Shown: piece by piece, positions 1,656-16,563 of the stretch
Position numbering within the stretch: position 1 is the first letter of the stretch
Layout: each line of letters starts with the position of its first letter
Source: an uncultured Actinomycetes bacterium
Lineage (GTDB): Bacteria > Actinomycetota > Actinomycetes > Mycobacteriales > Nakamurellaceae
NCBI GenBank assembly: GCA_937926105.1
Contig: CALANS010000097.1
Location: 1-16,563 of the forward strand
Length of the DNA stretch: 16,563 nt
Reading direction: 5' to 3'
Notes under the pieces: model-generated
Told to the model about the DNA's origin: nothing
What the model saw: only the letters and a program-made list of their open reading frames with translations
Databases searched by the model: none
Translations under genes and position numbers: made by a program

Positions 1656-2261
1656 TCATGAACGCGCGATGGCGATTGCCACCAGTAGGCCGACGACGAA
1701 CGCGGGACCGAGTGGGGCGTGCTGTCGGCCGCGGGCCTTGGCATGCAGAAGCGCGATGGCGATCGCGATCTGAGTGGCCAAAATAGCGACGGCCAGCGCC
1801 GTCCAGGAAAGCCAGCTGGCCAGGACTCCGCAAGCCGCCGCGAGTTTGACATCCCCGAGCCCGTAGCCGTCGCGGGCGAGGAGTGCTGCCAACAGGGTCC
1901 ATCCGCCAAAGATCGCGCCGCCAGCCATGGCGCGCCAGGGGCTACCCGCACCGGTCACGGCGGTGACCGCAGAGAGCCCTGCCAGCGCGAATCCGCCGCC
2001 TCCGATGGTCAAGACGTTGGGCAGCCGCTGTTCGGTGGCGTCGACCGCCGCGGCGACGAGAAGCAAAGCCAGCACCGTCGCGTAGATGCCGGCGGCCGCA
2101 ATGGGCCGAATGAGCATCGCCGCCGCCCCGATGATCACCGACCCGATCGTGAGGAGGGCCCAACCCGCCGCCTGTTGTCGGGCGGCGACATGTCGGGTGC
2201 GTTGCGCCAGGAGGTGGATGAGCGGCGTCGCTATCAGCCCACCAGCAGCGCCCCAGATCAT
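1656..2261 (-). CDS. tadV: Prepilin peptidase, single-domain A24 (TadV/CpaA type)
   Basis: This integral membrane aspartic protease (family A24) would cleave the leaders of the Flp-pilin-like and TadE-like proteins encoded just upstream. The 201-aa product is almost entirely hydrophobic, with about six membrane segments. The two catalytic aspartates are visible: D74 in VDATEQRLPN (the D...RLPN motif) and D137 in GLGDVKL (the GxGD motif, residues 134-137). A conserved-looking LGPAF follows near residue 184. There is no N-terminal methyltransferase domain, as expected for TadV/CpaA and unlike the bifunctional PilD type. The start ATG at 2261 overlaps the stop of the LysM-BTAD gene by 4 nt (ATGA), so translation is probably coupled. 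It is the last gene of the operon. Family assignment is firm; substrates are inferred from context. Confidence 0.93.
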   Translation of the reverse strand: MIWGAAGGLIATPLIHLLAQRTRHVAARQQAAGWALLTIGSVIIGAAAMLIRPIAAAGIYATVLALLLVAAAVDATEQRLPNVLTIGGGGFALAGLSAVTAVTGAGSPWRAMAGGAIFGGWTLLAALLARDGYGLGDVKLAAACGVLASWLSWTALAVAILATQIAIAIALLHAKARGRQHAPLGPAFVVGLLVAIAIARS

Positions 2262-5200
2262 GGCGCGGCTCGTGCGGGAGTGGAGCGGATCGGCGCGCGA
2301 TACAGGTCCGCAACGATGTCGCCGCAGGGCGCTGGTAGGTCAGCAGGCAGATCGACGCCGTTGAGTGTGAGCATGAGATCTGCCCAGGCCCTTGCGGTTT
2401 CGCGATCGCCTTGGGCGAGAGCGATGCGGACCATGTCGCACAGTGGGATGATGCTGTACGGATCTGCGGTCCTTCCGGTTGCGGCCGCGGCCTCTGCCTC
2501 GATGGCAGTGCCCACCGTTAGTGCGATGTCGACCAGGGCGTGCGCGGCGTCGACGATCTGTGTCGGCAGGATTCGGTCTTCCATCCGATCGGTGTTGGAC
2601 AGCCAGGTGTATCCGGGCCCGGAGGCTTCGGGCAGCACCGGCCCCCGCACCAGGCGTAGCGCCGACTGGTAGTCGACCATCGCTGCGTGCGCATCGCCAT
2701 GTTGCGCGTGCGACTTAGCCCGGGCTCGCAGCCTCGCGAAGAGTTCCGCGTCAACGAGCCGGTCGACCAGCTGGTAGCGGCCGCTCATCGTTGGCAGGAA
2801 GGGATCGTTGGGGGCGCGCATCCCTAGCCAGGCTCGTAACCTCGACACGTCGGCCCGCCGGGTCGAATCGCTCGGCTGCCGGTTTTCGGGCCAGAGGTCG
2901 GTGACGAATTTGTCGGCGCTGACGCCTGCGGGGTGCAGGGCGAGGTACACGGCGTACTCCGTCATACGCGCGATCGGTCTATCGCGGAGCACGCCGAGGC
3001 CGTCGACGTGCGCGTCACCGAGGATTGCGATTCTCGGGCGAGACGGGTTGTCCGAGAACCACTCCGCGAGGTCGGCATCAAGGGTTTGCGGCGCGCCGGC
3101 AGCGTGCGAGCCGATCTGATCTGCGGGCTGCGACTCACCGCGGGCGGCATTTTCGGCCGTCTCGTCGCCTGGGTTGTTGCGGTCGGTCGGCGCCGTCACG
3201 CAGGGTTCGTCGGCCGACAGGTCATCCACGTTGGTCTGGCTGAACAGGCCGACGATCGCGGCGAATTCCGCATTGGTGACCGATGCTGCGGTAATCCCAC
3301 CGATGTTTCCCAGCTTCGGCAGCTGCAGCGCCCCGGCAGCGTCGACGGTGACCCTCGTTTGGATGTCGACGCGGTCGCCACACGCGATGACAGCGGCGGC
3401 CGCGGCGGGACCATGTTCCAGCGCTTCGATGAGCTCGCCGATGCCGCGCATCTCTGCGAGAGCTCCGGAATTTGCGATGACGATATGCGGCTCCCATGCG
3501 TCCGAGTAGGTGGTCTCGGTTCGCGCGTGGGCGATGGGCTCGTCGCCGAGCACCTTCCGGGTGTGTTCGACCTGGTATCGCATGAATTGGGTGGCGGCCT
3601 GAAGGTCCTCGATGGCCTGAATCCTGTCACCGTCAAGCGCACAGACGCTGTCCGACACTCCGTGCACCGAGACGTGGATGCCGTCCATCCACGGGGATTG
3701 CGACAGTTCAAGAATGATGTGGTTGACGAGATTTCCGCATCGATCCGGGTCGCCACTGATGCTGAGGGCACCGAGGTGCTCAATATCCACAGCAACGAGG
3801 CGTCCATCGTCCAACGTTCCCAGTGTGACGAGAGCTGGTAGCGCGGAAAGCGTCTCGGCGCCTTTCAGTTCGGCATCTTCAGGCAAGTCGAGCAGCCAGA
3901 CGGTCTCGGTGCCGGTGAACGGCTCTGGTGGCGGCGCTGGAATCCTCGGGTGAAGCTCGATCGCCTCGTCGCCAATCAGCACCAAGTCGACTCCCGAAGG
4001 AGCATGCGCAGCCAGGGGCCCGGTGACTGATCGGAGCGCGGCGTTAAGGCGTTGCGGGGCGGCTGCTGTCGCGGATTCGTGTATAGACCGTTCGATTTGT
4101 GCCTCTTCGACGGTGAGCGATGCCGGTCGTTGCCCCGGGAGGCGCCTGCGTGCGAGTCGTCGGCGCACGGCGAGAAGGCCCGCCCAGGCGAGTGCGGCGG
4201 CGAGGGCAGTCGCGCCGCCGAGCGTCATCGTTCGTTGCGACATCGTCGATGCGGAAGCGGTTGAGCCCACGGCCTTTGGCGCGGCAAGTACTGGGTTCGC
4301 TTCGGCGTCGACGGCAGGTTGATGCTCGAGTTCGGATTCGGTGTGTTTGTTGTTTGGTGCCCCTGCAGTGTTCGCCAAGATGGCCTCAGCCCTCCGATCC
4401 GAGGCGCGGCCGGCAGTGGCATCAGCCCTGCTTCCGCCGTTGGCAGCGGCACGGTTGCCCGGGCCGCTTGCGCGGTCGACGTCAGAGCCGCTCTGAGGAT
4501 TTGCTGAGGTGTGGTCGTGGTGCGGCGTCGAATCGCCTCGTCGTGGACCCGCGCCGACTTGGTTATGTGCACCGGGCGACACGCCACCTCCCTTCCCATC
4601 GGGTACGGCGATGCGGATCGGTTGGCCCGGGTAGATGAGGTCGGGGTTGGCAATGTGGTTGGCGGCGGCGATCTGCGGGTAGAGCGCGGCGTCGCCGAGT
4701 CCGTTGAGGGCGATCTGGGAGAGCGTGTCGCCCGGTTCGACGACGACTGTCTCGCCCGCTGGGCGTTCGTCGCCGGCCTGCGCGGCGGCGCCCTGATCCG
4801 CAGCGGTGCCGCTGGCGCCGACGGGGAGGCGTGCGTCGGTGGGTAGATGCAGAATCCAGCCGGGGAGAAGGAAGTTCGCTGATTCCAGGGTGCGGCCGTC
4901 GGGTTGGGTGCGGCCTTGGTTGAGGGCCGCGATCTCGTGGTAGCGGCGGCCGCTGCCCAGGGTCTTCTCGGCGATGGACCACAGGCTGTCGCCTTTCGAC
5001 ACGGTCCAGGTCGGCCCGGCCGTGGCGGCGGGCCGGGCGGTGTGGGTGGGCGCGGCCGGGTGCGCCGTCATCCCTGCTTGGTCGTGACGTGCGGTGGGCG
5101 ACGCGGCATGAAACGATGCCGCCACAGATGTGACGGCGGCGGGTGCGGGGCGCGGCAGCAGCGGCAGGTTGGCGGCGATGGCCGGGGCGGCGGACGTGGC

Positions 5201-5551
5201 GATGGTGCCGGCGATAAGCATGCCGACGAGCACACCGGCAGCGGCTTGCGGCAGGTGCAGGCCGGGCAGGTGCCAGTCCGGCCGGTGCGCGATCCGCGAG
5301 GCCACCTCCATCAGCACGGTGATGGCGAAGATGGCCCAGGCGACGAAGCCGACGATGACGAGGAAGCCCAGGAAGACCTGGCCGGTGTCGCGTTCGGTCA
5401 GGCGCTGCCAGATCTCGCCCAGTCCCGGAACGTGGTCTGGCAGCAGCGGCAGGCCGAGCTTGTAGAGGGCGTAGGGGGCGCCGATCAACATCGCGGCCAG
5501 CGCCATGAGGGCGATGAGGCGGCGGATCTGGCGCGCGATGAATGCCATCAT
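2258..5551 (-). CDS. Membrane LysM-LysM protein with cytoplasmic wHTH/BTAD regulator domain
   Basis: This is a 1097-aa multidomain protein. Three N-terminal membrane segments (about residues 9-32, 58-82 and 102-127) precede two LysM domains (182-238, starting TWTVSKGDSLWSIAEKTLG; and 268-316, with VEPGDTLSQIALNGLGD). A long Ala/Gly/Asp/Asn-rich linker leads to a fourth segment (442-463) followed by an Arg cluster. A globular region without clear family signature (520-780) is followed by a winged-helix part (840-930) and a BTAD-type helical-repeat domain (931-1085). Positive-inside charges predict LysM outside and wHTH/BTAD inside. LysM binds peptidoglycan; BTAD is a helical domain of actinobacterial regulators of the SARP/AfsR type. 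The open frame extends to 5944, but its extra 131 residues are Arg/Pro-rich and shadow the previous gene. ATG 5551 overlaps that gene's stop (ATGA) behind GGGAGG. Whether it regulates transcription or serves as assembly scaffold is open. Confidence 0.88.
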   Translation of the reverse strand: MMAFIARQIRRLIALMALAAMLIGAPYALYKLGLPLLPDHVPGLGEIWQRLTERDTGQVFLGFLVIVGFVAWAIFAITVLMEVASRIAHRPDWHLPGLHLPQAAAGVLVGMLIAGTIATSAAPAIAANLPLLPRPAPAAVTSVAASFHAASPTARHDQAGMTAHPAAPTHTARPAATAGPTWTVSKGDSLWSIAEKTLGSGRRYHEIAALNQGRTQPDGRTLESANFLLPGWILHLPTDARLPVGASGTAADQGAAAQAGDERPAGETVVVEPGDTLSQIALNGLGDAALYPQIAAANHIANPDLIYPGQPIRIAVPDGKGGGVSPGAHNQVGAGPRRGDSTPHHDHTSANPQSGSDVDRASGPGNRAAANGGSRADATAGRASDRRAEAILANTAGAPNNKHTESELEHQPAVDAEANPVLAAPKAVGSTASASTMSQRTMTLGGATALAAALAWAGLLAVRRRLARRRLPGQRPASLTVEEAQIERSIHESATAAAPQRLNAALRSVTGPLAAHAPSGVDLVLIGDEAIELHPRIPAPPPEPFTGTETVWLLDLPEDAELKGAETLSALPALVTLGTLDDGRLVAVDIEHLGALSISGDPDRCGNLVNHIILELSQSPWMDGIHVSVHGVSDSVCALDGDRIQAIEDLQAATQFMRYQVEHTRKVLGDEPIAHARTETTYSDAWEPHIVIANSGALAEMRGIGELIEALEHGPAAAAAVIACGDRVDIQTRVTVDAAGALQLPKLGNIGGITAASVTNAEFAAIVGLFSQTNVDDLSADEPCVTAPTDRNNPGDETAENAARGESQPADQIGSHAAGAPQTLDADLAEWFSDNPSRPRIAILGDAHVDGLGVLRDRPIARMTEYAVYLALHPAGVSADKFVTDLWPENRQPSDSTRRADVSRLRAWLGMRAPNDPFLPTMSGRYQLVDRLVDAELFARLRARAKSHAQHGDAHAAMVDYQSALRLVRGPVLPEASGPGYTWLSNTDRMEDRILPTQIVDAAHALVDIALTVGTAIEAEAAAATGRTADPYSIIPLCDMVRIALAQGDRETARAWADLMLTLNGVDLPADLPAPCGDIVADLYRAPIRSTPARAAP

Positions 5552-6114
5552 GGGGTGCCTCCCTGTTGGTAGACGACCTGGGCCTGGCCTGATCCGGTGA
5601 CGGTGAACGCGTCGATGCCGACCAACGGCAGGAACACCGTGGCCTGGCGCAGCGTCGCGGTCGCCGTAACGTCGAGCCCCGTGACGGTGACGGTTCCGGT
5701 GGCGCCGGCCGCGGCGAGGTAGTCCTGCGCGGCCCGGTCGGCAGCCGCCGGGTCGATCGCGATGTCGCCGGGCCGGTATGTCGCGGCCGCCGCCCGGGCG
5801 GTCTCGGAGGCAATTGCGCCGGCGTGGTCGAGGGCGCGGGCCTTGGCTCCGCGGTCGAGGATCAGGCCGAGGATCATCACCAGCGCGACCGCCGAGACGA
5901 GCATCATCAGCGACATCCCGCTGGAGCCGGCGTCCGAGTGCCAATCGAGGCTTACTTCTTGGCGCCCAGGTCGCGGCTGTCGGATTTGGTGCCCCGAGTT
6001 GAAATCCGCGGCACGCGCTTCAGCTTCCTTTGATTTCACTGCACCGGTCGACGGATTCGGGTGCCGTTCGAGTGTGCGGCCGCGCGACACGGTTTGCGCT
6101 GGTGACGGTTTCAC
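5548..6114 (-). CDS. TadG-like pseudopilin/Flp assembly protein, GTG start
   Basis: The 188-aa product has a charged 60-residue N-terminus, the motif DAGSSGMSL, one membrane helix (about residues 67-87), then the sequence DRGAKARALDHAGAIASETAR and an exported-looking Val/Thr-rich C-terminus. The hydrophobic helix followed by an Arg/Ala-rich amphipathic helix resembles the N-terminal segment of TadE/TadG-like Flp assembly proteins. In Tad systems these are minor pilins or wall-spanning accessory proteins. The chosen start is GTG at 6114, which overlaps the stop of the upstream TadE gene (GTGA) and has GGGAG about 6 nt before it; the open frame continues to 6204 but that part is a shadow. The long charged leader is unusual. 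A GTG at 6039 is an alternative start but has no ribosome binding site. Confidence 0.78.
   Translation of the reverse strand: MKPSPAQTVSRGRTLERHPNPSTGAVKSKEAEARAADFNSGHQIRQPRPGRQEVSLDWHSDAGSSGMSLMMLVSAVALVMILGLILDRGAKARALDHAGAIASETARAAAATYRPGDIAIDPAAADRAAQDYLAAAGATGTVTVTGLDVTATATLRQATVFLPLVGIDAFTVTGSGQAQVVYQQGGTP
5558..5563 (-). promoter_or_regulatory. Ribosome binding site deciding the LysM-BTAD start
   Basis: On the minus strand GGGAGG lies 6 nt before the ATG at 5551, itself overlapping the upstream stop codon as ATGA. This selects 5551 over the longer open frame that begins at 5944. Confidence 0.75.
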
Positions 6115-6566
6115 GGCGTCTCCCTGCGCGGGTCGAGCGGGCTGGCCGCGGTGGCGGTGACGGTGTGGCTGCCGGGCCAGCCGGGGATCGCGAGGTCCGC
6201 CCATGCGACGGTGCAGTTGACCGTGACCGTGACATGCGCAGGTGTGCCGGGCGGAGTTTGCAGGCCTGTCGCGTCGACGGTGATGGTGGCGGATTGGCAG
6301 TCGATGCCCTGGTTGTGCAGGGTTGCGGCGATAACCGACCGGGCCGCGGCTTGAGCCTCCGCAGGAGTGTGCTGGGTGCTGGCGGCGCGCGCCCCGGCGG
6401 CCGCGGCCTGCTCGACCCGGGATTGCCCGGAGGCGGTGCGCCCGGTGGCGACGCCGACGAGGATGATCAGCAGGATCATCGGGGTGATCAGCACCAGTTC
6501 GAGGGCCGGCGTGGCCGAGCCGCGATCCGACCTCGCCCGCATCAGCGGCCGTTCGATCGTGCTCAT
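6111..6566 (-). CDS. tadE: TadE-like pseudopilin
   Basis: This 151-aa protein matches the TadE pattern: a short basic leader, then DRGSATPALELVLITP leading into one membrane helix (about residues 20-41), then an amphipathic Ala-rich helix and a Thr/Val-rich exported domain with two cysteines. Of the three TadE/TadG-like proteins here it alone keeps the glutamate (E23) at the start of the helix, typical of type IV prepilin-like proteins. TadE and TadF in known Tad systems are pseudopilins processed by the TadV peptidase, and a TadV-type peptidase is encoded downstream. The start ATG 6566 overlaps the previous stop as ATGA; the ATG eight codons later is a possible alternative. Role in pilus assembly is inferred from family and context. 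Confidence 0.85.
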   Translation of the reverse strand: MSTIERPLMRARSDRGSATPALELVLITPMILLIILVGVATGRTASGQSRVEQAAAAGARAASTQHTPAEAQAAARSVIAATLHNQGIDCQSATITVDATGLQTPPGTPAHVTVTVNCTVAWADLAIPGWPGSHTVTATAASPLDPRRETP

Positions 6567-7018
6567 GGCAGGGTCTCGACGTTCGCGGAGGCGTGGCCGG
6601 CGATGTGCGGGTGGGCGAGCGGAACCAGGTTCGGTGCGGCGGCGGTGACGGTCACGGTGAGCTGCTGCCCGGCCTGGGTGACGGTGATGACGGCATCTGT
6701 GAGGGTTCCAGCGGCCTCGTTCGTGACGAAGTCCTCGGCTGCCTGCCTGCCACGTTCGGCCGAGGCGGGGGCTTGGGTTGCGGCGCGTACGCCGGCCTGT
6801 GCTGCGGCGATCGCGAGGGATCTGGCGTAGCAGTGCAGGCCGAACTGCACGCCGCCGAAGACGAGCAGCAGCACCGCGGGCATGAGCAGGATGAAGCCGA
6901 GCGACGCCCCGCCGGAGCCCCGCTCCCCATCCCAGCGACCCGCGCTGGCCGGGGCGCGCCCGAGCCGGCCGCGGCGGGTCCGGTGCCGCGCTGCGGGTTC
7001 GAAGCGGATTCTCATCAT
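6563..7018 (-). CDS. TadE-like pseudopilin with Arg-rich leader, lacking the helix-start Glu
   Basis: The 151-aa product begins with a strongly basic leader of about 35 residues (several Arg pairs), followed by ERGSGGASLGFILLMP and one membrane helix (about residues 40-61), then a small exported domain rich in Thr/Val. The leader-plus-helix arrangement and the motif shared with the neighbouring pilin (RGSGG.SL) place it with TadE-like pseudopilins. At the position where the pilin has Glu (VSLEH), this protein has Gly (ASLGF), so processing may differ or depend on other residues. Two adjacent ATG codons (7018 and 7015) could both serve as start. The gene begins 20 nt after the pilin stop and overlaps the next TadE gene as ATGA. 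Confidence 0.8.
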   Translation of the reverse strand: MMRIRFEPAARHRTRRGRLGRAPASAGRWDGERGSGGASLGFILLMPAVLLLVFGGVQFGLHCYARSLAIAAAQAGVRAATQAPASAERGRQAAEDFVTNEAAGTLTDAVITVTQAGQQLTVTVTAAAPNLVPLAHPHIAGHASANVETLP

Positions 7019-7038
7019 CGCTGGTGCTGAGGCTTGGT

Positions 7039-7254
7039 TTAGGGGTTGAGGTCGGCGGTCTTGGAGTTGATGACGGCGGCGATCGCGGCGACGACGATGC
7101 CGGCGGCGATGACGCCGCCGATCGCGATCAGGACGTGCTCCAGGGAGACGCCGCCGGAGCCGCGGTCCGGCTCACGGCGCAGCGCCTGGAAACGGCGGTG
7201 CACGGTGAGCATGACCGTGGAATACAGCATGGTGATGGACATCGGGATGGACAT
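7039..7254 (-). CDS. Flp-type pilin-like small protein
   Basis: This 71-aa protein has the form of a Flp pilin: a leader of about 34 residues, then RGSGGVSLEH and one long hydrophobic helix (about residues 38-62), ending NSKTADLNP. If the peptidase cuts after G34, the mature chain is 37 residues with Glu at position +5 (E39), matching the type IV prepilin rule of Gly at -1 and Glu at +5. Flp pilins are the major subunits of Tad pili. The gene sits between tadC and the TadE-like genes, as a major or minor pilin gene would. Start ATG 7254 has GAGGAG 5 nt upstream. It is the only gene in the cluster preceded by a real spacer (55 nt), fitting a need for higher expression. It could also be a minor pilin. 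Confidence 0.85.
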   Translation of the reverse strand: MSIPMSITMLYSTVMLTVHRRFQALRREPDRGSGGVSLEHVLIAIGGVIAAGIVVAAIAAVINSKTADLNP

Positions 7255-7259
7255 TTCGA

Positions 7260-7265: not shown

Positions 7266-7292
7266 AGGTGGACGCGGAATTTGTTACATCAC

Positions 7293-7309: not shown

Positions 7310-8218
7310 TCAGGTTGCAGTCAGTTGGGTGATCGCCGGGTAGAGCAGGAATGCCATGGTGGCCATCGCCAGCACAGCTTTGGGGATGGCCATGCGCCCG
7401 GATGCCACCTGCGCCGCGGCGATCTCGTCGGTCTGGAGTTGGGCGCGCAGCGAGGTGGCGCGGGCGAGCAGCGTGTCGTAGATCGCCGCGCCCTGAGTGC
7501 CGGCCGCAGCGGCGATCGCGGACAGGTCGGCGAGTTCGTCGACTCCCATCTCCTCGGCGAGATCGGCGATGCCCCGCCAGTGGGAGTGCCCGGCACGGGT
7601 CGCGGAATCGATCGCGCTCTTGATCCGCCGAAACGTCCACAGCTCGGAGACCGCGGCGGCATCGTCGAGGGCGGCGCCGGGGCCGGCCCCGGCGGCGCGG
7701 TGCAGCGCGACAAGCTGCAGGTAGGCGACCAGGCTGCGCCGCATCTCCAGCCTGGCCTGGTCGGCCTTGCCCGTGACGTGGCCGGCGACGGCGACCCACA
7801 CGAGAGCAGCGCCCCCGGCCACGACACCGACCGGGATGGTCACGGGGAGATCAAGTCCGAACGCGGCGAAGATCAGCAGATAGACCGGCCCGACCAGAAG
7901 AGTCGCCGCAGTGAGGGTGACGCGGGTGAGCAGGAATTCGCCGCGCCGCATCCCGATCACCGCCAAGTCCCTATCGGGGGCGGTGAAATATGTTGCGGCA
8001 AGCCACGTCTCGAGTCGAGTCTGTAACCCGGCGATCCCGCCGGTCGGCTCTACGGGCTGTCCCGGCGCAGCGGCAAGACTCGCAGCGCCACCGTGGCCGG
8101 GCATGTGGAGAGCGGCGAGTAGATCGGGCCGGCCCGGAACCAGGGCGGCGACGATCATGGCGATACCGAGCCCGGCCGTGCCGCCGGCTGCGAGCAGACC
8201 CAGCGTCGCCGCACTCAT
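7310..8218 (-). CDS. tadC: TadC-like inner-membrane platform protein (T2SSF family)
   Basis: TadB and TadC form the membrane platform that couples the TadA motor to pilin polymerisation. This 302-aa protein has an N-terminal helix (about residues 5-27), a helical pair near 97-146, a cytoplasmic four-helix T2SSF-type domain (about 160-275, with MRRSLVAYLQLVALHRAAG and EEMGVDELADL) and a last membrane helix (about 277-298). Length and topology fit TadC. The segment ADLAEEMGVDELADLSAIAA resembles the TadC region where the T2SSF repeat turns. Start ATG 8218 overlaps the tadB stop (ATGA). It follows tadA-tadB in the usual Tad gene order. Confidence 0.9.
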   Translation of the reverse strand: MSAATLGLLAAGGTAGLGIAMIVAALVPGRPDLLAALHMPGHGGAASLAAAPGQPVEPTGGIAGLQTRLETWLAATYFTAPDRDLAVIGMRRGEFLLTRVTLTAATLLVGPVYLLIFAAFGLDLPVTIPVGVVAGGAALVWVAVAGHVTGKADQARLEMRRSLVAYLQLVALHRAAGAGPGAALDDAAAVSELWTFRRIKSAIDSATRAGHSHWRGIADLAEEMGVDELADLSAIAAAAGTQGAAIYDTLLARATSLRAQLQTDEIAAAQVASGRMAIPKAVLAMATMAFLLYPAITQLTAT

Positions 8219-9183: not shown

Positions 9184-10661
9184 ACCCGATCACCCCTCTC
9201 CCAGGGCTGCGACCAGGTGCCGTTCGCGGCGCTCAGCCAGCCGAGGTCGAAACCGGCGCGGTGGCACCAGGTTTGGTCTTCGGGCAGGTGCTGTGGGTAG
9301 CCGCGCGGATCGTCCGGTCGGCCCGGGTCGGGGGCGAAGATGCTGGTGGTGGCGGGCTGACCGTTCTCCCCGACGGGGCCGACCTCGACGATGTCGGACA
9401 CGAATCGGTGTTTGCGCCCGGTTGGGGTAGCGGCGGCGTCGATGTAGACGATGAGGTCGACGGCGGTAGCGATCTGGGCCATCGCCGCGGCGTGGTTCCA
9501 GTTCGGTTTGTACTCCCCCAGCAGGGATGCGAGGGCTTCGAACGTGCCGGTGGCGGAGTCGGCGTGGAACGTGGCCATCGAACCCTTCAAGCCGCGCGAC
9601 ATCGCCGCCAGCATCGGGATGACCTCGGCGCCGCGCACCTCGCCGACCAGGATCCGCTCCAGCCCGTGCCGCAGCAGCTCCGGGAAAATGTCCGCCAGGG
9701 TCACCTCACCGGCCGCCTTGCCGCCCGGGTCGCGTTCCCCCGTGGCCGGCCGGCCCTCCGCCGGCAGGATCAGCGGGAAGCGGCCCGGCAGCTCGTGCAG
9801 GAGCAGCTCGTACTCGGTCTCCAGGGTGGCGAAGCGTTCCATGTCCGGCAGGCAGCGGGCCAGGGCGCGCAGCAGCGTGGTCTTGCCCGCGCCCGGCGAG
9901 CCGACGATCAGCAGGGAGCGATGCCCGCCCACCGCGGCGGTCAGGAACGCGGCCATCGCCTTCGAGATCGTGCCCATGGCCGCGAGCTGGTCCAGGGTGA
10001 CGTCGACGAAGCGGTGCCGGCGGATCGTGACCTGCGGATGCGGGGTGATCGACCACTGCGCCGCCAGCCGGGAACCGTCCGGCAGGCGCAGATTGAGGAA
10101 CGGCCAGGCGGTGACGACGGCCCGTTCGTTCTGCCCGTGGTACGTCGCGATCGATCGCAGCTGCTCCAGCAGACCCGCATCCGACTCCGCGACCGGGGCT
10201 GCGGTTTCACTGTGCCCGTCGGCGAAGCGTCTGATCGCCGGGGCGGCGCCGTTGATGAAGATCTCCTCCACGTCCGCGTCCTGCAATAGCTGTTCGATGC
10301 GGCCCAGGCCGAACATCGCCGCCAGCACCGCCTCGGCCAGCGCAGCCTCCTGCGCGTCGGTCGGCGGATTCCCGGCGGCGGTCTCGCCGTCGGCCCAGGC
10401 CGCGGTGCGTTCACTGATCAATCCCAGGGCGAGCTGGCGCTGCTCGCCGCGATCCAAACCACGTTCGCCGTCGCGGCTATAGCGGTCGAGTTCGGCGTTC
10501 ACCTCCGATTGGATGCGGCGCACGGTCGCGAAATCGACTGCGGCAACCGAAGTTTCATCGTCCAGCCACGGTGCGCGCGGTGCACCGTTCCTTCGTTCGC
10601 CCCACTCGTCGCTCGGGTACGGGTGGACACCGTCGATTTGGCCGCCCAGGAGGGCCGTCAT
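9180..10661 (-). CDS. tadA: TadA/CpaF-family secretion ATPase
   Basis: This is the cytoplasmic hexameric motor of a Tad pilus (type II/IV secretion ATPase superfamily, CpaF branch). The 493-aa product has a helical N-terminal region, the N2 domain starting near residue 120 with VEEIFINGAAPAIRRFADG, Walker A GSPGAGKTT (254-262), an Asp-box-like LETEYELLLHE (280-290), Walker B RILVGEVRGAE (336-346) and a His box with H366 in SMATFHADSATGTFEAL. A Pro/Gly-rich stretch (about 292-318) between the Asp box and Walker B appears longer than in typical CpaF proteins. The Trp-rich C-terminal extension (about 440-493) is also extra. Start ATG 10661 overlaps the upstream stop (ATGA). Everything needed for ATPase activity is present. 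In actinobacterial elements such ATPases are found both in pilus and in proposed conjugation clusters. Confidence 0.96.
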   Translation of the reverse strand: MTALLGGQIDGVHPYPSDEWGERRNGAPRAPWLDDETSVAAVDFATVRRIQSEVNAELDRYSRDGERGLDRGEQRQLALGLISERTAAWADGETAAGNPPTDAQEAALAEAVLAAMFGLGRIEQLLQDADVEEIFINGAAPAIRRFADGHSETAAPVAESDAGLLEQLRSIATYHGQNERAVVTAWPFLNLRLPDGSRLAAQWSITPHPQVTIRRHRFVDVTLDQLAAMGTISKAMAAFLTAAVGGHRSLLIVGSPGAGKTTLLRALARCLPDMERFATLETEYELLLHELPGRFPLILPAEGRPATGERDPGGKAAGEVTLADIFPELLRHGLERILVGEVRGAEVIPMLAAMSRGLKGSMATFHADSATGTFEALASLLGEYKPNWNHAAAMAQIATAVDLIVYIDAAATPTGRKHRFVSDIVEVGPVGENGQPATTSIFAPDPGRPDDPRGYPQHLPEDQTWCHRAGFDLGWLSAANGTWSQPWERGDRV

Positions 10662-11686
10662 GATCCGCCACCCGTCCGCGCCGTAGCCGCCGCCGGCGCG
10701 TGTGACGAATGCCGGGCCACAGCGGCGGCAGGGGCGGCTCGGTGGGCCGGCGCCGGGCCATATTCACCGGCAAATCCGGAGGCTGCGCCATCCACCTCGG
10801 CTTGCACACGTTCCGCGTGGCCCGGCCCCGCCGTGTCCTTTTCACGGGCAAGTCCCGGCGTCGGGGCACGGAAGGCGACTTGCCCGGGCTGTCCGTGGTC
10901 CGACACTAGGAGGCCTGCTTCCGCCGAAGGTGATGCAGCTTGTTGCGCGAGGGTTTTCGCGAGCCGGGCCGCACAGCGCGTCAGCGGCATGGCCGCCATC
11001 GCGCGCGGCGCGGGCAGGCCATCGACGAGCGCTCCCGCCGAGGCAGGATCCCATGCGAGCACCCCGGCGACCCGCGCGCCATCGGCCATCGCGGCGCGAA
11101 TGTCGCGCTCCGAATAGGGTCGGCCGGGTCCGATGATCACCGACTGCAGCCTGGGTGGGCCCGCCCCAATCACCGCCCCTCCAGTCGCACCCAATGCCTC
11201 CCGCGACATCGACGCCGCGGCTTGTGCCGCGTGCACGGCGGGCAGGGTTGAGCGCGTCGCGACGATCACCACGTCGGCGCTAGCCCACAGCGCTTGGTGC
11301 GCCGCCGGTGCGGGGATGCGGCCGGCGTCGATGATCACATCCACCGTCAATCCCCTCAGCGCCGCAGCGACGGCCAAGTAGTCGACGGCCTCGGCCTGCC
11401 GGGAGGTGTCAACACCGGGCAGCAGCCAACGGCTCTCGCCAAGGGCGACGACGTTCGCCCATATGGCCTCCGCCATGCTGGAGCGTCTGGCCGCGACCCG
11501 CACGCCGGTCAGGTTCCGGCCACTGATATCCGTGCCGGCTGCATAGCCGAGCACCAGGGAGCCGCCTGCCGGATCCGCCTCCACCAGCAGCACCGGCCGC
11601 GGCCAGGTGAGCGTCATACTCAACGCGGCGGTCGACGCGCCGGGTGATCCCTTGCCGGAGACGATCGAGATGATCACGGCGGTCAC
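10658..11686 (-). CDS. CpaE/TadZ-like ParA-superfamily protein with degenerate Walker A
   Basis: The 342-aa product starts VIISIVSGKGSPGASTAAL: the glycine-rich loop keeps the ParA signature lysine (SGKG) but lacks the catalytic lysine of GK[S/T], having Ala instead (GAST). The strand-loop VLLVEADPAGGSL fits the Walker A' region with its Asp (E-A-D), and later DVIIDAGR and DVVIVATRSTL match the Walker B and following strand of MinD/ParA folds. The last 75 residues are Pro/Ala-rich and disordered. In Tad loci CpaE/TadZ proteins localise the machine to a cell site; the position just before tadA fits. The open frame reaches 11731, but the chosen GTG at 11686 overlaps the upstream stop (GTGA) and opens exactly before the first ParA strand. 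ATP hydrolysis is doubtful; nucleotide binding may persist. Confidence 0.82.
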   Translation of the reverse strand: MTAVIISIVSGKGSPGASTAALSMTLTWPRPVLLVEADPAGGSLVLGYAAGTDISGRNLTGVRVAARRSSMAEAIWANVVALGESRWLLPGVDTSRQAEAVDYLAVAAALRGLTVDVIIDAGRIPAPAAHQALWASADVVIVATRSTLPAVHAAQAAASMSREALGATGGAVIGAGPPRLQSVIIGPGRPYSERDIRAAMADGARVAGVLAWDPASAGALVDGLPAPRAMAAMPLTRCAARLAKTLAQQAASPSAEAGLLVSDHGQPGQVAFRAPTPGLAREKDTAGPGHAERVQAEVDGAASGFAGEYGPAPAHRAAPAAAVARHSSHAPAAATARTGGGS

Positions 11687-12408
11687 CGCTCGGCAATCAC
11701 GATGATCGCGGCAACACCGGCAGCCGACCACTTCGCCACGGTCGCGGCGTCGGCGCGCGCGACCAGCACATCGACGCTGCGGCCGCCCGAAGCGTCCGGC
11801 GCGCCCACCGTGAACACCACCGCTCGAATCGGGTCAGGCGACTGCTCCACAGCCTGTGCGGCGGTTTGGTTGTCGCGGTCTGCGCGGGTGATCCAGACCT
11901 GTTGCCGGGCCGCCAATTCTGTGACGGGCAGCAGACCGGGTTTGACGGCGACGCCGACGAGGGCCTGCCCAACAGCCGGGATCTGCCCGACCATGACGTC
12001 GTCGACAGTGAGGAGGGAACCGGCGTGCAGATCGGTTGATGCCGGCCGCCCGACGGCCGTGCTGCGGTCGGCCCACGACATTGGGTGCAGTGCGGGGTCG
12101 GTGGCGATCCGCGCCTCGACCACGTCTTCGGCGGTGATCGTCTGACCCCAGGGAACGTCGGCGGACAGCGCAACCACGGCGATGCGGTGCGACGCGTTCG
12201 ATGCGAGCACGTAGGCGCCGACCGCGCCGAGGACCACCATTACCGCCCCGGCGGCGAGCAGCAACGGTCGGCGCCTCCGTTTCGGCTGCGGCAGGACCGG
12301 CGCGGGTGGCACTCGCGTCGGCCCGCCATCACGGTGCAGGGCAGGTTGAGCATCACGATGTGTCGGGGCGCCATTTATGGTCGTAGGTGTTTCGGTTCGA
12401 AGGCTCAT
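11683..12408 (-). CDS. SAF-domain membrane protein, CpaB/RcpC-like
   Basis: The 241-aa product has a Pro/Arg-rich cytoplasmic N-terminus ending KRRRR, one membrane helix (about residues 48-70), and an exported SAF domain (about 77-140: VVALSADVPWGQTITAEDV and later HAGSLLTVDDVMVG), followed by a beta-rich C-terminal domain with VAVKPGLLPVTEL and a typical terminal GVAAIIVIAER. SAF proteins of the CpaB/RcpC group act in the periplasm of Tad systems near the secretin; no secretin is visible here, and monoderm Tad loci often have SAF proteins without one. Start ATG 12408 has AGGTGG about 6 nt upstream. It directly precedes the CpaE-like gene, as cpaB/cpaE order would suggest. Confidence 0.82.
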   Translation of the reverse strand: MSLRTETPTTINGAPTHRDAQPALHRDGGPTRVPPAPVLPQPKRRRRPLLLAAGAVMVVLGAVGAYVLASNASHRIAVVALSADVPWGQTITAEDVVEARIATDPALHPMSWADRSTAVGRPASTDLHAGSLLTVDDVMVGQIPAVGQALVGVAVKPGLLPVTELAARQQVWITRADRDNQTAAQAVEQSPDPIRAVVFTVGAPDASGGRSVDVLVARADAATVAKWSAAGVAAIIVIAER

Positions 12409-12429
12409 CGCGTTCCACCTGGTCTCCCG

Positions 12430-13284
12430 CTACTTTGCCGCGACAATCACGGTGCGCCACTCCCCCACCCGGACTGGCGCCATCGATCGCGTCGTGACAC
12501 TGTCCGTGCCGGACTCCCCCGTGTTCGCCGACCACGCGATCGACCACGTCGCCGCGGCCGTCACCGGCCACGCACCCGTGCCGTTCGTGCGGTCATCCAA
12601 AGATCGCAGCCGGTAGGTGTAGCCGCAGGGCGGCGCCCACAAATCCGCGCCCGCCCACGGCGCCTCACCGCCGCCCGCGCAGTTGACGTCGACCGCGCCG
12701 GGCTCGCCCATGTACCACGCCACCGAAGCCAGCGTCGCCCTGGCCGTGACCGTCACCGATCGGTCCGTGGCCGCCGCCGATACCGCATTCGAGTTCGAGA
12801 CCCATAGCCAAACCGGCACATTCACCGCGACCTGCTGCGCATTCGGTCCAATCTCAATGTGCGGCAACGGGATCGGAAGTTTGGCGATCGCCTCCTGCGC
12901 CAACGCGTACGGATTTGGCGGCGGATTCGTGTTCTTCAACACCGCGAAAACGTCCGGGCTCTGCCAATCTGTTGCGCCACAGCCCGACTGCATCAATACG
13001 TAGTCGGCCGGATTTGCGCCCGCTGGGATGTAGTCCACCCAGACCGGGTCGTCGGGCACAGGTTGGCTGATTTCGACAGCAAAACATGGCTGTGAACCCG
13101 AGCCATCGGAATTCTGAGCTTCACCGCTGCCGTCACTACCGGCGCAAACGACATACTCGCTCGTTATTGGATTCAAGTACCCGCATGTTTGCGCGAGCGC
13201 GCTCGGTGCAATCAACACCATCGTCGCGGTCGCGACTCCTGCGCACACAACCAGGTAAGGAATCACCCGCAGCGACGTCAGCAT
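12430..13284 (-). CDS. Secreted hypothetical protein, Cys-paired, of the transfer/pilus cluster
   Basis: The 284-aa product has a Sec signal peptide: basic N-terminus, hydrophobic core (about residues 8-27), and a likely cut after ALA at residue 31. The mature chain has six cysteines (34, 47, 67, 102, 202, 220), suggesting three disulfides, and is rich in Trp, Pro and Thr with alternating beta-like segments; VNVPVWLWVSNSN and YALAQEAIAKLPIPLP are distinctive. I do not recognise a named family, but this looks like an actinobacterial surface protein that accompanies Tad-like clusters. Start ATG 13284 overlaps the lipoprotein gene by 7 nt and no closer start fits the signal peptide. It ends 21 nt before the SAF gene. 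A role as wall-spanning or outermost component is inferred from context only. Confidence 0.8.
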   Translation of the reverse strand: MLTSLRVIPYLVVCAGVATATMVLIAPSALAQTCGYLNPITSEYVVCAGSDGSGEAQNSDGSGSQPCFAVEISQPVPDDPVWVDYIPAGANPADYVLMQSGCGATDWQSPDVFAVLKNTNPPPNPYALAQEAIAKLPIPLPHIEIGPNAQQVAVNVPVWLWVSNSNAVSAAATDRSVTVTARATLASVAWYMGEPGAVDVNCAGGGEAPWAGADLWAPPCGYTYRLRSLDDRTNGTGAWPVTAAATWSIAWSANTGESGTDSVTTRSMAPVRVGEWRTVIVAAK

Positions 13285-14012
13285 GGTTCCACCGGATTCG
13301 GCGTCTTGATGTCATTCAGGAACCACAGCTCCGGGTCTTGGTCGTAGTAGAGGCTGATGCTGAATGTCCGTGAGAATCGTGGCGGAGTACCGCGTTCCAG
13401 CACCGAGTCGCCGTTGTTGTTGACGACGTCATATTTGCTGAGATCGACACATGCCTTGATCTGCACGTTGTGCTCGGCTGCGCTGAGAACCTCGGCGGTG
13501 TAGCCAATGTCGCCAACCTGGCGGATGCCTTGCTTGACGAACGTGTTGATCAGGGCCATCTGTTTCAGCGCGGCCGGGTCGTTAACGTACCGGTAGATGA
13601 GTGGCTTCCAGTCCTTGCCGGCAGGATCTTTCAGGGATTCATCTATGACGCGCATCGCATGGCGCCACACCCCGGCGGCCTGATTCGCCACCTTCAAGTC
13701 CGCGCCGATGATCGTGTCGGGGATCGTCACGGGAATGGCGTCATACATGTCGCCAGAGGTATCGGCCGACGTCGTGGTCGGCCGATCGATGGCGGCTGTC
13801 GTCGACGTGCCGCCGGGCGCGGTGCTGGTGGTCGTCGTGCCGGATAGCCACGATTCGACCGGATCAACACTGGCCGTTGAACTCGTTGTGACCAGCGGGC
13901 TGGCCGTGGTGGTTGGTTCCGGAGTTGTGCTGGGGTCGGTTCCGGCCGTGGCGGTGCAGGCGGCAAGCGTCATCGTGGTCGCGGTCAGTATGGCTGCGAT
14001 CAGTCGCTTCAT
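13278..14012 (-). CDS. Putative lipoprotein with Thr/Ser-rich tether
   Basis: The 244-aa product begins MKRLIAAILTATTMTLAAC: a lipoprotein signal peptide with lipobox LAAC and acylation site C19. A Thr/Ser/Pro-rich tether (about residues 20-88) precedes a compact C-terminal domain (about 100-244) with two cysteines (188 and the last residue, 244), probably disulfide-bonded. The pattern of a helical start followed by strands VQIKACVDLSKYDVV and FSRTFSISLYYDQ and a Trp near the end suggests an NTF2/VirB8-like fold, but I only infer this. The frame is open to 14351; the signal peptide and a perfect GGAGGTGA box 7 nt upstream fix ATG 14012. That box overlaps the stop of the coupling-ATPase gene. 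GC is lower than in the cluster, about 53% in the line 13321-13380 counted by hand. Confidence 0.85.
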   Translation of the reverse strand: MKRLIAAILTATTMTLAACTATAGTDPSTTPEPTTTASPLVTTSSTASVDPVESWLSGTTTTSTAPGGTSTTAAIDRPTTTSADTSGDMYDAIPVTIPDTIIGADLKVANQAAGVWRHAMRVIDESLKDPAGKDWKPLIYRYVNDPAALKQMALINTFVKQGIRQVGDIGYTAEVLSAAEHNVQIKACVDLSKYDVVNNNGDSVLERGTPPRFSRTFSISLYYDQDPELWFLNDIKTPNPVEPC

Positions 14013-14019
14013 CGCGTCG

Positions 14020-14027
14020 TCACCTCC
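14020..14027 (-). promoter_or_regulatory. Strong ribosome binding site of the lipoprotein gene
   Basis: Minus-strand GGAGGTGA is a full match to the anti-Shine-Dalgarno core, 7 nt before ATG 14012. Its last bases are the TGA stop of the coupling ATPase gene, so termination and re-initiation are physically linked. Confidence 0.8.
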
Positions 14028-15843
14028 CCGCTGACGATGGAGGTTTGCCCATACTGCTCCCGGCTGGGGTAATTGGCAAGATTGTCGGCAACAATGCACT
14101 ATTTTTGTCGAAAAGCACCGTTGCGGCATTATGCGTACGTATTGCCATATCTCGCTTGTCTCGGTGGGTCCATGGCCGCATGCGCATGACCGCCGGGGGG
14201 ACGGATCGAAGAAGCAGCACGGACGATCCGAAGGGCAGAGTGCGGAGCCGTCCGGGGTCGAGGATCGGGATGCGGCGCAGCGAGGAGGAGCGGCTGCGGG
14301 TGCCGTCATTTCCGCGGTTTTCGGCCCAGGTGGTTTCGTCGCGCTCCCCAATCAGCGCGGCGAGGTCGCGTAGGTCGCCGGCGTTGCCGCCGCCGCCCAG
14401 GATGATCTTGGTGGTGCTGGCGTCCCACACGGTCGCGGCAGCCTGTTCGCCCCACTTGTGGCGCGCCTGGGCGAGGGATTGCAAGATCGCCCAGGTGCAG
14501 ATCCCCGTGCCGCCGCCCTCGGACATCAGGGTTGGCAGGGACGGAAGGGGTGAGAGGTTGCCGATTTCGTTGAGCATCACGGTGAGCGGCGGATCCAGCC
14601 GCGAGGACGGTGAGGCTGCCGCGACGTGCCGCGCGGTTTCCACGATGTCCTCGACGAACGCGGCGACCAGATTCGCGGCCGCTCCCGCGCCGGTGGACGT
14701 GCCGACCAGGTACAGGGTGCCGCGGTTTCGGATGAATGCGGCGGGGTCGAACTGCTCCCCCGGCCCCGGGGAGACGGCGGCGAGCACGTCCGGATCACCC
14801 AACGCCCCCAACGACTGTCGAACGCCGAGCCAGACGGAGTCGCGTTGCCGCGGGTCCGAGTCCGCCACCGCGTTCAGTGCGGTGGCCCATCCTGCGGGGG
14901 CCCGCGGGTTGGAGTCGAGGATCGCGATCGCGTCCTGTACCGCAGCGGGGGTCAGCGACCACCGGTACAGGTCGGCGGCGCCGCGATGGTCCAGGGCCGC
15001 TGCCATGAGCAGGGCGCGCAGCGCGGCCTCGGTCTGGCCCTGCCAGAAGCTGCCGTCTTCGGCGCCCTTGCCGGTACCGGCGGCGAGGCCGGCGGCGCGG
15101 ATCATGGCTGTCATCGGTTGCTCGCAGCCGCGGGTCAGCGACCAACGCAGGCCGACCTGGGTGTCGCCGGCGAGGTGTTGCGGGTCGAACACGGCGACCG
15201 GACCGAGATGCCTTCTGGCGCCGATGGTTTGGTCAATGTTGTCCGGCCGGGTCGATGTCGCGATCACCGCGCCGGGTGCGTCGAGGATGACGTTGACGAC
15301 CAGGTGCAGGTCCTTGCCGGATCGGGCCGGGCCGAGCACCACGACGGAGTCCTCCACCGACGACCACGCTTCGATGCCGTGCGAGGCGCCGAGCAGAAAT
15401 CCGACGTCGCGCGCGGCAGGCTTACCGATGGAGGGGCGGAGAAGTCGGCCGCGCTTGCGTACCGCACGCGGGGAGCAGGTATCGCGGATCTTCCGGCGGG
15501 ACGCCGTGCCGGGCAGGCGAAACACATCTACGGGTTCCGGGTCGGTGATGAACACGTGTCGCACGCCAACCGCGAGCAGCACCGCCGCGGCGGCCACTAC
15601 CAGCGTGATCGCCCAATACACGGCCGGGCCCGGGTTGGCGGCGCCCCACACGGAAGCCGGCCGGGCCGCGTGCGTAACCGCTCGAACACCGGCGAACACG
15701 TCACCGTGCGGGCGCCGACCTACGGTCACGACCGCCAGCGCACCGCCCGCCCACAGGGCACCAACGACACCCGCTATCGCGAGAACAGCGGCCGCCCAGG
15801 CAGTGTCATTCGACGGCCGTACAGCATTAAGCGTTCGAGTCAT
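14020..15843 (-). CDS. TraG/VirD4-like coupling ATPase (T4SS conjugative transfer)
   Basis: The 607-aa product has two N-terminal membrane helices (about residues 15-41 and 75-95), then the RecA-like core: Walker A GPARSGKD (171-178), a conserved VIATSTRPDNI segment, and a Walker B-like region PLTVMLNEIGNLSPLPSLPTL (419-439) followed by GICTWAILQSLAQARHKWG. The order and motifs are those of TraG/VirD4/TraD proteins, which recruit substrate DNA or protein to a secretion channel. The position normally occupied by Asp before the catalytic Glu is Asn (LNEI). The open frame starts at 15966, but ATG 15843 overlaps the preceding stop (ATGA) and gives a normal N-terminus. The last 50 residues, after WTHRDKRD, are encoded by AT-rich DNA (45% GC in 14101-14160) and look non-conserved. 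A role in conjugation is the best reading; pilus-linked protein export is the alternative. Confidence 0.9.
   Translation of the reverse strand: MTRTLNAVRPSNDTAWAAAVLAIAGVVGALWAGGALAVVTVGRRPHGDVFAGVRAVTHAARPASVWGAANPGPAVYWAITLVVAAAAVLLAVGVRHVFITDPEPVDVFRLPGTASRRKIRDTCSPRAVRKRGRLLRPSIGKPAARDVGFLLGASHGIEAWSSVEDSVVVLGPARSGKDLHLVVNVILDAPGAVIATSTRPDNIDQTIGARRHLGPVAVFDPQHLAGDTQVGLRWSLTRGCEQPMTAMIRAAGLAAGTGKGAEDGSFWQGQTEAALRALLMAAALDHRGAADLYRWSLTPAAVQDAIAILDSNPRAPAGWATALNAVADSDPRQRDSVWLGVRQSLGALGDPDVLAAVSPGPGEQFDPAAFIRNRGTLYLVGTSTGAGAAANLVAAFVEDIVETARHVAAASPSSRLDPPLTVMLNEIGNLSPLPSLPTLMSEGGGTGICTWAILQSLAQARHKWGEQAAATVWDASTTKIILGGGGNAGDLRDLAALIGERDETTWAENRGNDGTRSRSSSLRRIPILDPGRLRTLPFGSSVLLLRSVPPAVMRMRPWTHRDKRDMAIRTHNAATVLFDKNSALLPTILPITPAGSSMGKPPSSAGR
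14051..14079 (-). promoter_or_regulatory. Weak candidate internal promoter before the lipoprotein gene
   Basis: On the minus strand TTGCCA (14079-14074) resembles a -35 box in five of six positions, and CAGTAT (14056-14051) after a 17-nt spacer is a poor -10. It lies in the unusually AT-rich 3' end of the coupling ATPase gene, about 39 nt before the lipoprotein start. It would let the downstream Tad-like part be transcribed apart from the two transfer genes. The -10 match is weak, so it may be chance. Confidence 0.18.
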
Positions 15844-16563
15844 CGCGACACTCCCGCAGCGACGGCCCTGGCGGGTCGCCTTTCGCGTCTGGCGTGCAAC
15901 GCGGGCGCCTCGCGGCGCTGCTGCTCGACGCGCTCCTGTAGCCCGGGCGGCTGTCCGGATCCCCATTGCCGGGTGGGCAGCTCGTCAAGGACGCGGCGGG
16001 CGATGGCGATCACCCGGGTGCCCGTTTGTCGCACCGTGGTCAGACCATCCTCTCGACTGGCCCAGGTCAAGATGTAGGGAAGCGAGTAGTCGGAGGTGTC
16101 CATGCCGTGGGCTGCGCCGATCAGAAACGCGACCGACTCGGCCTCAACCTCCTTCGCTCCACGCGTCACCGCCATCGCTGCCGCGAGGTCGGTCACGCCA
16201 TCCGGGCCGCGCGGGTCATGGAGCAGCACGTGCCCCAACTCGTGAGACAGCGTCTTGGCGCGAGCCGCGTCATCCATGTCGGCCCGGATCGTCACGGTCA
16301 TGTCCGCCCAGTTGGTGACGCCGCTCCCGCCGCCCAACGCGGCGGCCGATGGCGCGTCGCGAAGTGTGAAGTCTCGTGCGGCAATCTGTTCCGCGAGCCC
16401 AGCCCACAAACCGTCGGGTGCCCGTCCGGCCAGAATGAGCGGCGCTGGCAGCTCGGGGACGGGTTCGCCGTCGGTCTGCGAGATGTCGAACACCGTCGCG
16501 AGATCGAATGGCCGGTTCGGATTCAGCCGGGACCGTTGTCGGAGCGGCGCGCCCGGTCGGGGC
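15840..16563 (-). CDS. ArdC-like antirestriction / ImmA-IrrE zinc metallopeptidase, C-terminal part
   Basis: The frame has no stop up to the window edge, so the gene is 5'-truncated here; about 240 residues are visible. The first residues, NRPFDLATVFDISQTDGEP, match the junction typical of ArdC-like antirestriction proteins (ssDNA-binding domain followed by a metallopeptidase domain). The GTG at 16493 lies inside this conserved stretch and is unlikely to be the start. The metallopeptidase motif HELGH is encoded at 16230-16244, followed by EVEAESVAFLIGAAHG, where a glutamate supplies the likely third zinc ligand. The tail is Arg/Ala-rich. ArdC proteins protect incoming plasmid DNA from restriction during conjugation; ImmA-type domains can also cleave repressors. 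It overlaps the coupling ATPase gene as ATGA, which ties DNA-entry functions to the same transcript. Confidence 0.85.
   Translation of the reverse strand, partial: PRPGAPLRQRSRLNPNRPFDLATVFDISQTDGEPVPELPAPLILAGRAPDGLWAGLAEQIAARDFTLRDAPSAAALGGGSGVTNWADMTVTIRADMDDAARAKTLSHELGHVLLHDPRGPDGVTDLAAAMAVTRGAKEVEAESVAFLIGAAHGMDTSDYSLPYILTWASREDGLTTVRQTGTRVIAIARRVLDELPTRQWGSGQPPGLQERVEQQRREAPALHARRERRPARAVAAGVSR

What the first reader, a model, noticed from the sequence alone, without database searches (positions are those of the whole stretch)
1656..16563. Tad pilus machine joined in one operon with a VirD4/TraG coupling ATPase and an ArdC-type antirestriction protein
Seen: tadA, tadB, tadC, a pilin, three TadE/TadG-like proteins and a prepilin peptidase are contiguous and translationally overlapped with a TraG/VirD4-like ATPase and an ArdC/ImmA protein. 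Known: TraG/VirD4 and ArdC belong to conjugation, whereas Tad belongs to the type IV pilus family and normally works without a coupling protein. No VirB4, VirB6, secretin or relaxase is visible. Inference: the Tad motor and platform may replace the VirB channel in a DNA-transfer machine. To my knowledge Tad-like genes do occur on actinomycete conjugative plasmids, but the mechanism is not well described.
Basis: partly seen in the sequence, partly recalled or inferred. Interest (0 to 1): 0.8.

Follow-up and report, generated by a model that had tools for sequence, protein, structure and literature searches.

The report
Conjugation operon with a Tad pilus
The window is one end of an actinobacterial DNA-transfer element in which a complete Tad-type pilus follows the DNA-exporting machinery, probably so that donor cells can catch partners, a device that a recent review says Gram-positive conjugation systems lack.

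Summary
One minus-strand chain runs ArdC (cut by the contig end), TraG/VirD4, an NTF2-fold lipoprotein, a secreted protein, SAF/RcpC, TadZ, TadA, TadB, TadC, Flp, two TadE, TadG-like, LysM-BTAD and a prepilin peptidase, with eight 4-bp stop/start overlaps.

That Tad replaces the VirB channel is not supported. Five relatives keep TraG before Tad. In the four that reach past ArdC, a VirB4-type ATPase (two only as edge fragments) lies 1-6 kb on; one also carries SCO6880, SCO6881, DUF6112, VanY and a MOBF relaxase. The missing VirB genes reflect where the contig ends.

Best reading: a conjugative element with a Gram-positive T4SS plus a Tad pilus for mating-pair formation, like R64 and PAPI-1. The same Tad type sits near different conjugation systems on actinobacterial plasmids, but two of eight Tad loci in one family show no T4SS nearby.

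Unexpected: the coupling-ATPase clade has Walker A GKD and Walker B LNE in 12 of 12 members, GKG and LDE in the next 108 of 108 listed.

The parts
15840..16562 (-). ArdC antirestriction protein, C-terminal part (cut by the contig end)
   Evidence: Peptidase_M78; full-length homologues L031:16340-17422 and L036:8448-9629 have ArdcN; 73-82% identity in four relatives
14020..15843 (-). TraG/VirD4-type coupling ATPase, 607 aa, start overlapping the ArdC stop (ATGA); Walker A GKD, Walker B LNE
   Evidence: PF12696 3.8e-26 and PF02534 1.7e-16; start and codons; motif comparison
13278..14012 (-). lipoprotein with NTF2-like / VirB8-like fold, candidate cell-wall T4SS subunit
   Evidence: 20 homologues; AF2 model confident from about residue 90 on; Foldseek and VIA matches to NTF2-like proteins including VirB8 proteins 6iqt and 4o3v and pIP501 TraM 3wz3 and TraH 5aiw, tied with unrelated NTF2-like folds
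12430..13284 (-). secreted 284-aa protein, predicted beta-sandwich; homologues sit before SAF in Tad clusters of two Streptomyces plasmids
   Evidence: weak PKD/Ig matches, best E 2.4e-3
11683..12408 (-). SAF-domain RcpC/CpaB-like protein
   Evidence: PF08666 2.4e-5; FlgA C-terminal hit 1.4e-4 below cut-off
10658..11686 (-). TadZ/ParA-like protein with a degenerate P-loop (GKGSPGAST)
   Evidence: position and sequence; no Pfam hit
9180..10661 (-). TadA/CpaF pilus motor ATPase
   Evidence: PF00437 8.8e-21; TIGR03819 'TadA family conjugal transfer-associated ATPase' 6.5e-39, below its cut-off; canonical motifs
8215..9183 (-). TadB platform protein
   Evidence: T2SSF 1.5e-4, below its curated cut-off
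7310..8218 (-). TadC platform protein
   Evidence: T2SSF 4.9e-6
7039..7254 (-). Flp-type prepilin, 71 aa, G/GVSLEH processing site
   Evidence: 61-87% identity in four relatives; no family hit of use
6563..7018 (-). TadE-type minor pilin
   Evidence: PF07811 3e-7
6111..6566 (-). TadE/TadF-type minor pilin
   Evidence: PF07811 2.6e-7
5548..6114 (-). TadG-like protein, one TM segment, GTG start overlapping the TadE stop
   Evidence: no Pfam hit
2258..5551 (-). LysM - TM - BTAD protein, 1097 aa
   Evidence: PF01476 1.3e-13, PF03704 5.5e-5; TM segments
1656..2261 (-). A24 prepilin peptidase (TadV role)
   Evidence: PF01478 2.6e-11
66..1547 (+). conserved unknown protein, convergent to the chain; found beside the cluster in 4 of 5 relatives, possible border marker
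   Evidence: 55-77% identity; the fifth contig, G002:C31, ends about 1.2 kb past the A24 gene and shows no match; no family hit

Best explanation
The window is the Tad end of an integrative or plasmid-borne conjugative element of an actinomycete close to Nakamurella. DNA is nicked by a MOBF relaxase, handed to the TraG coupling ATPase and sent through a Gram-positive T4SS (SCO6881/VirB6-like, SCO6880 plus VirB4 ATPase, VanY-type wall hydrolase, possibly the VirB8-fold lipoprotein), with ArdC probably guarding the entering strand. The Tad genes downstream make a thin Flp pilus, anchored at the wall by the LysM-BTAD and SAF proteins, that catches recipients and, by TadA-driven retraction, pulls them close. 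The pilus is thus a mating-pair device beside the DNA channel, not the channel. Shown: gene content, order and their conservation in relatives. Inferred: that the window's own element continues into the T4SS, and the function of the pilus.
For: Order kept in five relatives. VirB4 ATPase beyond ArdC in 4 of 4 relatives that reach so far; SCO6880 in two; fuller T4SS and MOBF relaxase in one. Contigs C12 and C22 of the same MAG carry relaxases 83-84% identical to that of C13 and T4SS pieces at 49-88%, each with an integrase match 3.5-4.5 kb from the relaxase match. 4-bp overlaps tie ArdC to TraG and Tad genes to each other. The same Tad type lies within 20 kb of TcpC or SCO6880 in 11 of 17 genera with a marker, 5.6 expected by random placement, P about 0.003. 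Tad loci are paired with different T4SS types: pNOCA01 (Tad before SCO6880 and TraG), and Xylanimonas, Brachybacterium and Microbacterium (TcpC type). pAL1, called conjugative in PMC3534580 (passages seen), carries both. Type IV pili act this way in R64/IncI and PAPI-1 (PMC12857230 passages; PMC5297154 abstract).
Against: Two of eight Tad loci in the family (G012, G015) show no T4SS gene within 20-30 kb by BLAST with my reference proteins (G012 has only a weak 24% match to the helicase part of a MOBF relaxase). On two Streptomyces and one Kitasatospora plasmid the nearest marker is 89-98 kb away, on the Micromonospora plasmid 79 kb (sub-cut-off SCO6880 pieces lie nearer). Two of 20 plasmids (Nonomuraea, Embleya) have no TcpC or SCO6880 above cut-off. 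How often Tad-less plasmids carry these markers was not measured. The C13 relaxase has no integrase near it; the only PF00589 match on that contig is about 110 kb away. On C13 plus-strand genes lie between VirB4 and ArdC, so T4SS and Tad are not one transcript there. No expression, pilus or transfer data exist for this element.
Confidence: 0.6

Rival explanations
1. The Tad pilus is an adhesion or biofilm module carried by a conjugative element, useful to the host cell and only indirectly to transfer.
For: Tad/Flp pili are adhesins in many bacteria (PMC5696575 discussion); Tad loci of this type also occur without T4SS genes found nearby (2 of 8) and far from markers on Streptomyces plasmids.
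Against: Fixed position after TraG in six loci including the window; non-random closeness to T4SS markers across 17 genera; linkage to different T4SS types.
Confidence: 0.25
2. One reading: the Tad motor and platform replace the VirB channel and the pilus machine moves the DNA, energised with TraG.
For: PAPI-1 is proposed to be such a chimera of type IV pilus + VirB4 + VirD4 (PMC12857230 passages); the same review says Gram-positive T4SS lack VirB11, and TadA also matches VirB11 models.
Against: VirB4 ATPase, SCO6880, SCO6881/VirB6-like, DUF6112 and VanY genes lie next to it, so no channel need be replaced. A related SCO6880-type T4SS in the same MAG (C23, TraG 54%) shows no Tad match in its first 40 kb (L037/L038).
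Confidence: 0.07
3. Tad here serves natural transformation (DNA uptake), as in Micrococcus luteus.
For: Flp pili are required for transformation in M. luteus (PMC4322843 passages).
Against: No competence domain among the Pfam hits of the ORFs scanned; the neighbours are export genes (VirD4, VirB4, relaxase).
Confidence: 0.05
4. Coincidental neighbours: two independent modules side by side.
For: Tad and T4SS occur apart elsewhere.
Against: Six loci with TraG before Tad; the stretch between VirB4 and ArdC varies in length and content while TraG-to-A24 keeps its order, apart from an interruption on C41.
Confidence: 0.03

Closest known systems
Linear plasmids of Cutibacterium acnes with a tad locus (p15.1.R1, pIMPLE-HL096PA1, p09-9)
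   Same: Same Tad set in the printed table: SAF/RcpC, TadZ/A, TadA, two TadB/C, an unknown ORF, three TadE, LysM-BTAD; conjugation genes upstream (PMC3666418 passages, PMC5696575 passages and discussion)
   Different: There the named conjugation genes are FtsK/TraB-like, VirB4 and TcpC-like, not TraG/SCO6880/MOBF; the authors write that a functional link of the Flp pili to conjugation is unclear
PAPI-1 island of Pseudomonas aeruginosa
   Same: Type IV pilus genes plus VirB4 and VirD4 on a conjugative island; the pilus recognises recipients (PMC5297154 abstract; PMC12857230 passages)
   Different: Gram-negative, no further clear T4SS parts; here the pilus is of the Tad class and a fuller Gram-positive T4SS lies beside it in relatives
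R64/IncI thin pilus
   Same: Type IV pilus genes beside a complete T4SS, aids liquid mating (PMC12857230 and PMC12102498 passages)
   Different: Not Tad; a separate gene cluster; Gram-negative
Nocardioides pNOCA01 and Paenarthrobacter pTC1
   Same: LysM-BTAD Tad cluster next to SCO6880 and TraG; MOBF relaxases elsewhere on the same plasmids
   Different: T4SS lies downstream of Tad; the pNOCA01 TraG has GKT and LDE motifs

Membership tests
Tad/Flp (type IVb) pilus locus | TadA-type motor ATPase | tested here: met
   PF00437, TIGR03819 below its cut-off, intact motifs in the window
Tad/Flp (type IVb) pilus locus | two T2SSF platform proteins | tested here: met
   TadC above cut-off, TadB at 1.5e-4 and below cut-off; homologous to annotated pairs in L004/L005
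Tad/Flp (type IVb) pilus locus | Flp pilin, TadE pseudopilins, prepilin peptidase | tested here: met
   the Flp call rests on size, site and position, with no family hit
Tad/Flp (type IVb) pilus locus | secretin RcpA (Gram-negative Tad only) | not tested
   none seen among the Pfam hits; not expected in monoderms (recalled)
VirD4/TraG coupling proteins | TraG-D_C and T4SS-DNA_transf domains, two N-terminal TM segments | tested here: met
VirD4/TraG coupling proteins | canonical Walker B Asp | tested here: not met
   Asn in 12 of 12 clade members, Asp in the other 108 of the 120 listed; I keep the functional comparison and call it a divergent relative
ArdC | ArdcN ssDNA-binding domain plus metallopeptidase domain | tested here: met
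   in two full-length homologues (M78 of L036 below cut-off); in the window only the C-terminal half is present
Complete conjugative T4SS | VirB4, VirB6-like, VirB8-like, relaxase with the coupling protein | tested here: inconclusive
   present on MAG 69-20 contig C13; the window itself ends before these genes; the VirB8-like assignment is fold-level only; SCO6881 is below its curated cut-off
Pilus-assisted conjugation (R64, PAPI-1 type) | pilus needed for or enhancing transfer | not testable with these tools
   needs a tad mutant

The most novel reading that the evidence does not exclude
A Gram-positive conjugation machine with its own pilus: the Tad pilus is an obligatory part of transfer (PAPI-1-like), TadA takes the place of the VirB11 ATPase that Gram-positive T4SS lack, and the coupling ATPase has moved its magnesium-site acid from Walker B to Walker A as part of this rearrangement.
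Probability: 0.12. Interest if true: 0.9.

Novelty: new variant of a known kind. Interest (0 to 1): 0.62.

Why it matters
[quoted passage not shown] If the Tad pilus on these elements brings mates together, that statement fails for a broad group of actinobacterial plasmids and integrated elements, including catabolic plasmids such as pAL1, and the plasmid-borne Tad locus of C. acnes gains a likely function. The Walker A/B exchange offers a natural test of which acid the coupling-protein ATPase needs.
Full report
WHAT IS THERE. On the minus strand of the window, from 16562 down to 1656, lies one gene chain: ArdC C-terminal part, TraG/VirD4 coupling ATPase, a lipoprotein, a secreted protein, SAF/RcpC-like, TadZ-like, TadA, TadB, TadC, a 71-aa Flp-type pilin, two TadE, a TadG-like protein, a LysM-TM-BTAD protein and an A24 prepilin peptidase. 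Eight junctions checked are ATGA or GTGA overlaps, including ArdC/TraG. No tRNA or Rfam match was found. A plus-strand gene of unknown family (66-1547) converges on the chain. The window's TraG is listed on a contig of 16,563 bp, the window's own length, so the contig ends inside ArdC.

CONSERVATION. A scan of genome contigs with TadA, which reaches close relatives only, gave four loci: three in MAG 'Actinobacteria bacterium 69-20' and one in Nakamurella sp. HJP_bin23. All four keep the order from ArdC and TraG to Tad and A24, with TadA at 72-86% and TraG at 75-80% identity. In one (contig C41) the SAF gene was not matched and TadZ only in part; an ORF that I take, from recall and no family search, for a transposase lies there. 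A fifth locus, contig C31 of the Nakamurella MAG, shows the Tad set, the secreted protein and the end of TraG at its contig edge.

THE MISSING CHANNEL IS NEXT DOOR. In the four relatives whose contigs reach past ArdC, a VirB4-type ATPase follows 1.2 to 5.4 kb further on, same strand; on C14 and C41 it is a fragment at the contig edge. On C13 of 69-20 the run continues with SCO6880 (NF042935, 259 bits), a SCO6881 protein (84 bits, below its cut-off), DUF6112 proteins, a VanY-type peptidase and, some kilobases on, a MOBF relaxase; the ATPase matches a solved VirB4 (4ag5, 2.8e-5). In the Nakamurella locus SCO6880 is present up to the contig end. Contigs C12 and C22 of 69-20 carry relaxases 83-84% identical to that of C13, C12 with most of the T4SS (49-84%) and C22 with the start of it; each has an integrase match 3.5-4.5 kb from the relaxase match. 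These may be the other halves of the C14 and C41 elements; this pairing is inference. The C13 relaxase itself has no integrase near it. Contig C14 also holds genes that I read from sequence as ribosomal proteins (no family search), which suggests chromosomal integration. The genes between VirB4 and ArdC vary (a DnaE-type polymerase on C13), so T4SS and Tad need not be one transcript.

TAD TRAVELS WITH CONJUGATION GENES. The LysM-BTAD protein marks this Tad type; 180 of 72,556 plasmid records match it. I took 20 records of 19 genera. TcpC (PF12642) is over cut-off in 13 and SCO6880 in 5, together in 18 of 20; TraG-D_C in 7 of 20; FtsK_SpoIIIE in 12 of 20; MOBF in 5 of 20; T2SSE in 20 of 20. In 17 genera with a marker the gap to TadA is 20 kb or less in 11 (5.6 expected by random placement, P about 0.003) and 30 kb or less in 13 (7.9 expected, P about 0.005). 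The partners differ: SCO6880 and TraG downstream of Tad in pNOCA01 and TcpC-type in Xylanimonas, Brachybacterium and Microbacterium; a gene annotated FtsK lies beside Tad in Micromonospora. Against this, two Streptomyces markers and a Kitasatospora one lie 89-98 kb off and the Micromonospora one 79 kb. In the family of the Nakamurella MAG (17 genomes, 8 Tad loci in 5 genomes) six loci lie with T4SS genes (C31 with a TraG fragment only; G007 with SCO6880, VirB4 and TraG about 11 kb away), and two (G012, G015) show none within 20-30 kb by BLAST with my references, apart from a weak helicase-part match in G012. Tad is therefore a portable module that prefers, but does not need, conjugative company.

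THE COUPLING ATPASE. TraG of the window and its 11 closest relatives form one group (100/100, 55-row tree). All 12 have Asp after the Walker A lysine (GKD) and Asn in place of the Walker B aspartate (LNE); the other 108 of the 120 listed have GKG and LDE. Codons in the window and four loci confirm it. Two TraG copies of the same two MAGs that show no Tad beside them are GKG/LDE (L013 on an 8.7-kb contig, L016). TadA matched all three of my patterns in the window, L006 and L009, two in L007 and one in L008; VirB4 is canonical. The catalytic Glu is kept. By established knowledge of P-loop ATPases, the residue after the Walker A lysine and the Walker B Asp both face the magnesium ion, so the acid may simply have moved; loss of activity is the alternative. 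A link to Tad is only a correlation: the five loci of the group with visible context (window, L006-L009) are Tad-linked; the TraG fragment on C31 lacks the motif region.

HOW IT MOST LIKELY WORKS. Relaxase, coupling protein and T4SS export the strand; ArdC protects it. The Tad pilus finds and pulls in recipients; CpaF/TadA drives extension and retraction in Caulobacter (PMC11300603, start of abstract in a listing). The LysM-TM-BTAD protein has the layout of FimV-like pilus hubs (recalled) and may tie the pilus to the wall. The lipoprotein has the NTF2 fold shared by VirB8 proteins.

WHAT IS KNOWN. C. acnes linear plasmids have the same Tad set near conjugation genes; their authors leave a functional link open (PMC5696575, PMC3666418). 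In Gram-negatives R64 and PAPI-1 use type IV pili for mating. The 2025 T4SS review says that Gram-positive systems have no conjugative pili and no VirB11. My searches for a paper on Tad pili in Gram-positive conjugation (open-licence library only, listings capped) showed no such report beyond C. acnes in the rows listed. A 2026 Rhodococcus paper counts chromosomal tadA and tadE among conjugal transfer genes (PMC12915292 passages).

Noticed in passing
window 15312 and 14571 (TraG codons): Walker A GKD and Walker B LNE are fixed in the TraG group of the window (12 of 12) and absent from the other 108 listed relatives.
   Followed up: yes
L027:8607-12011: A DnaE-type polymerase (PHP and Pol III alpha domains) sits between the VirB4 ATPase and ArdC in MAG 69-20 contig C13, as if cargo.
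   Followed up: partly
L031:168-2135: A GmrSD-type restriction gene lies directly beside the prepilin peptidase end of the C14 element.
   Followed up: partly
L033:73-1554: An ORF that looks like a transposase (recalled, no family search) lies where SAF is expected in the C41 copy.
   Followed up: no
window 66-1547: Conserved protein of no known family at the far side of the cluster in 4 of 5 relatives.
   Followed up: partly
MAG 69-20 (G001): Three Tad-linked TraG loci in one MAG, plus a further T4SS (C23) whose VirB4 and SCO6880 are only about 36-37% identical.
   Followed up: partly
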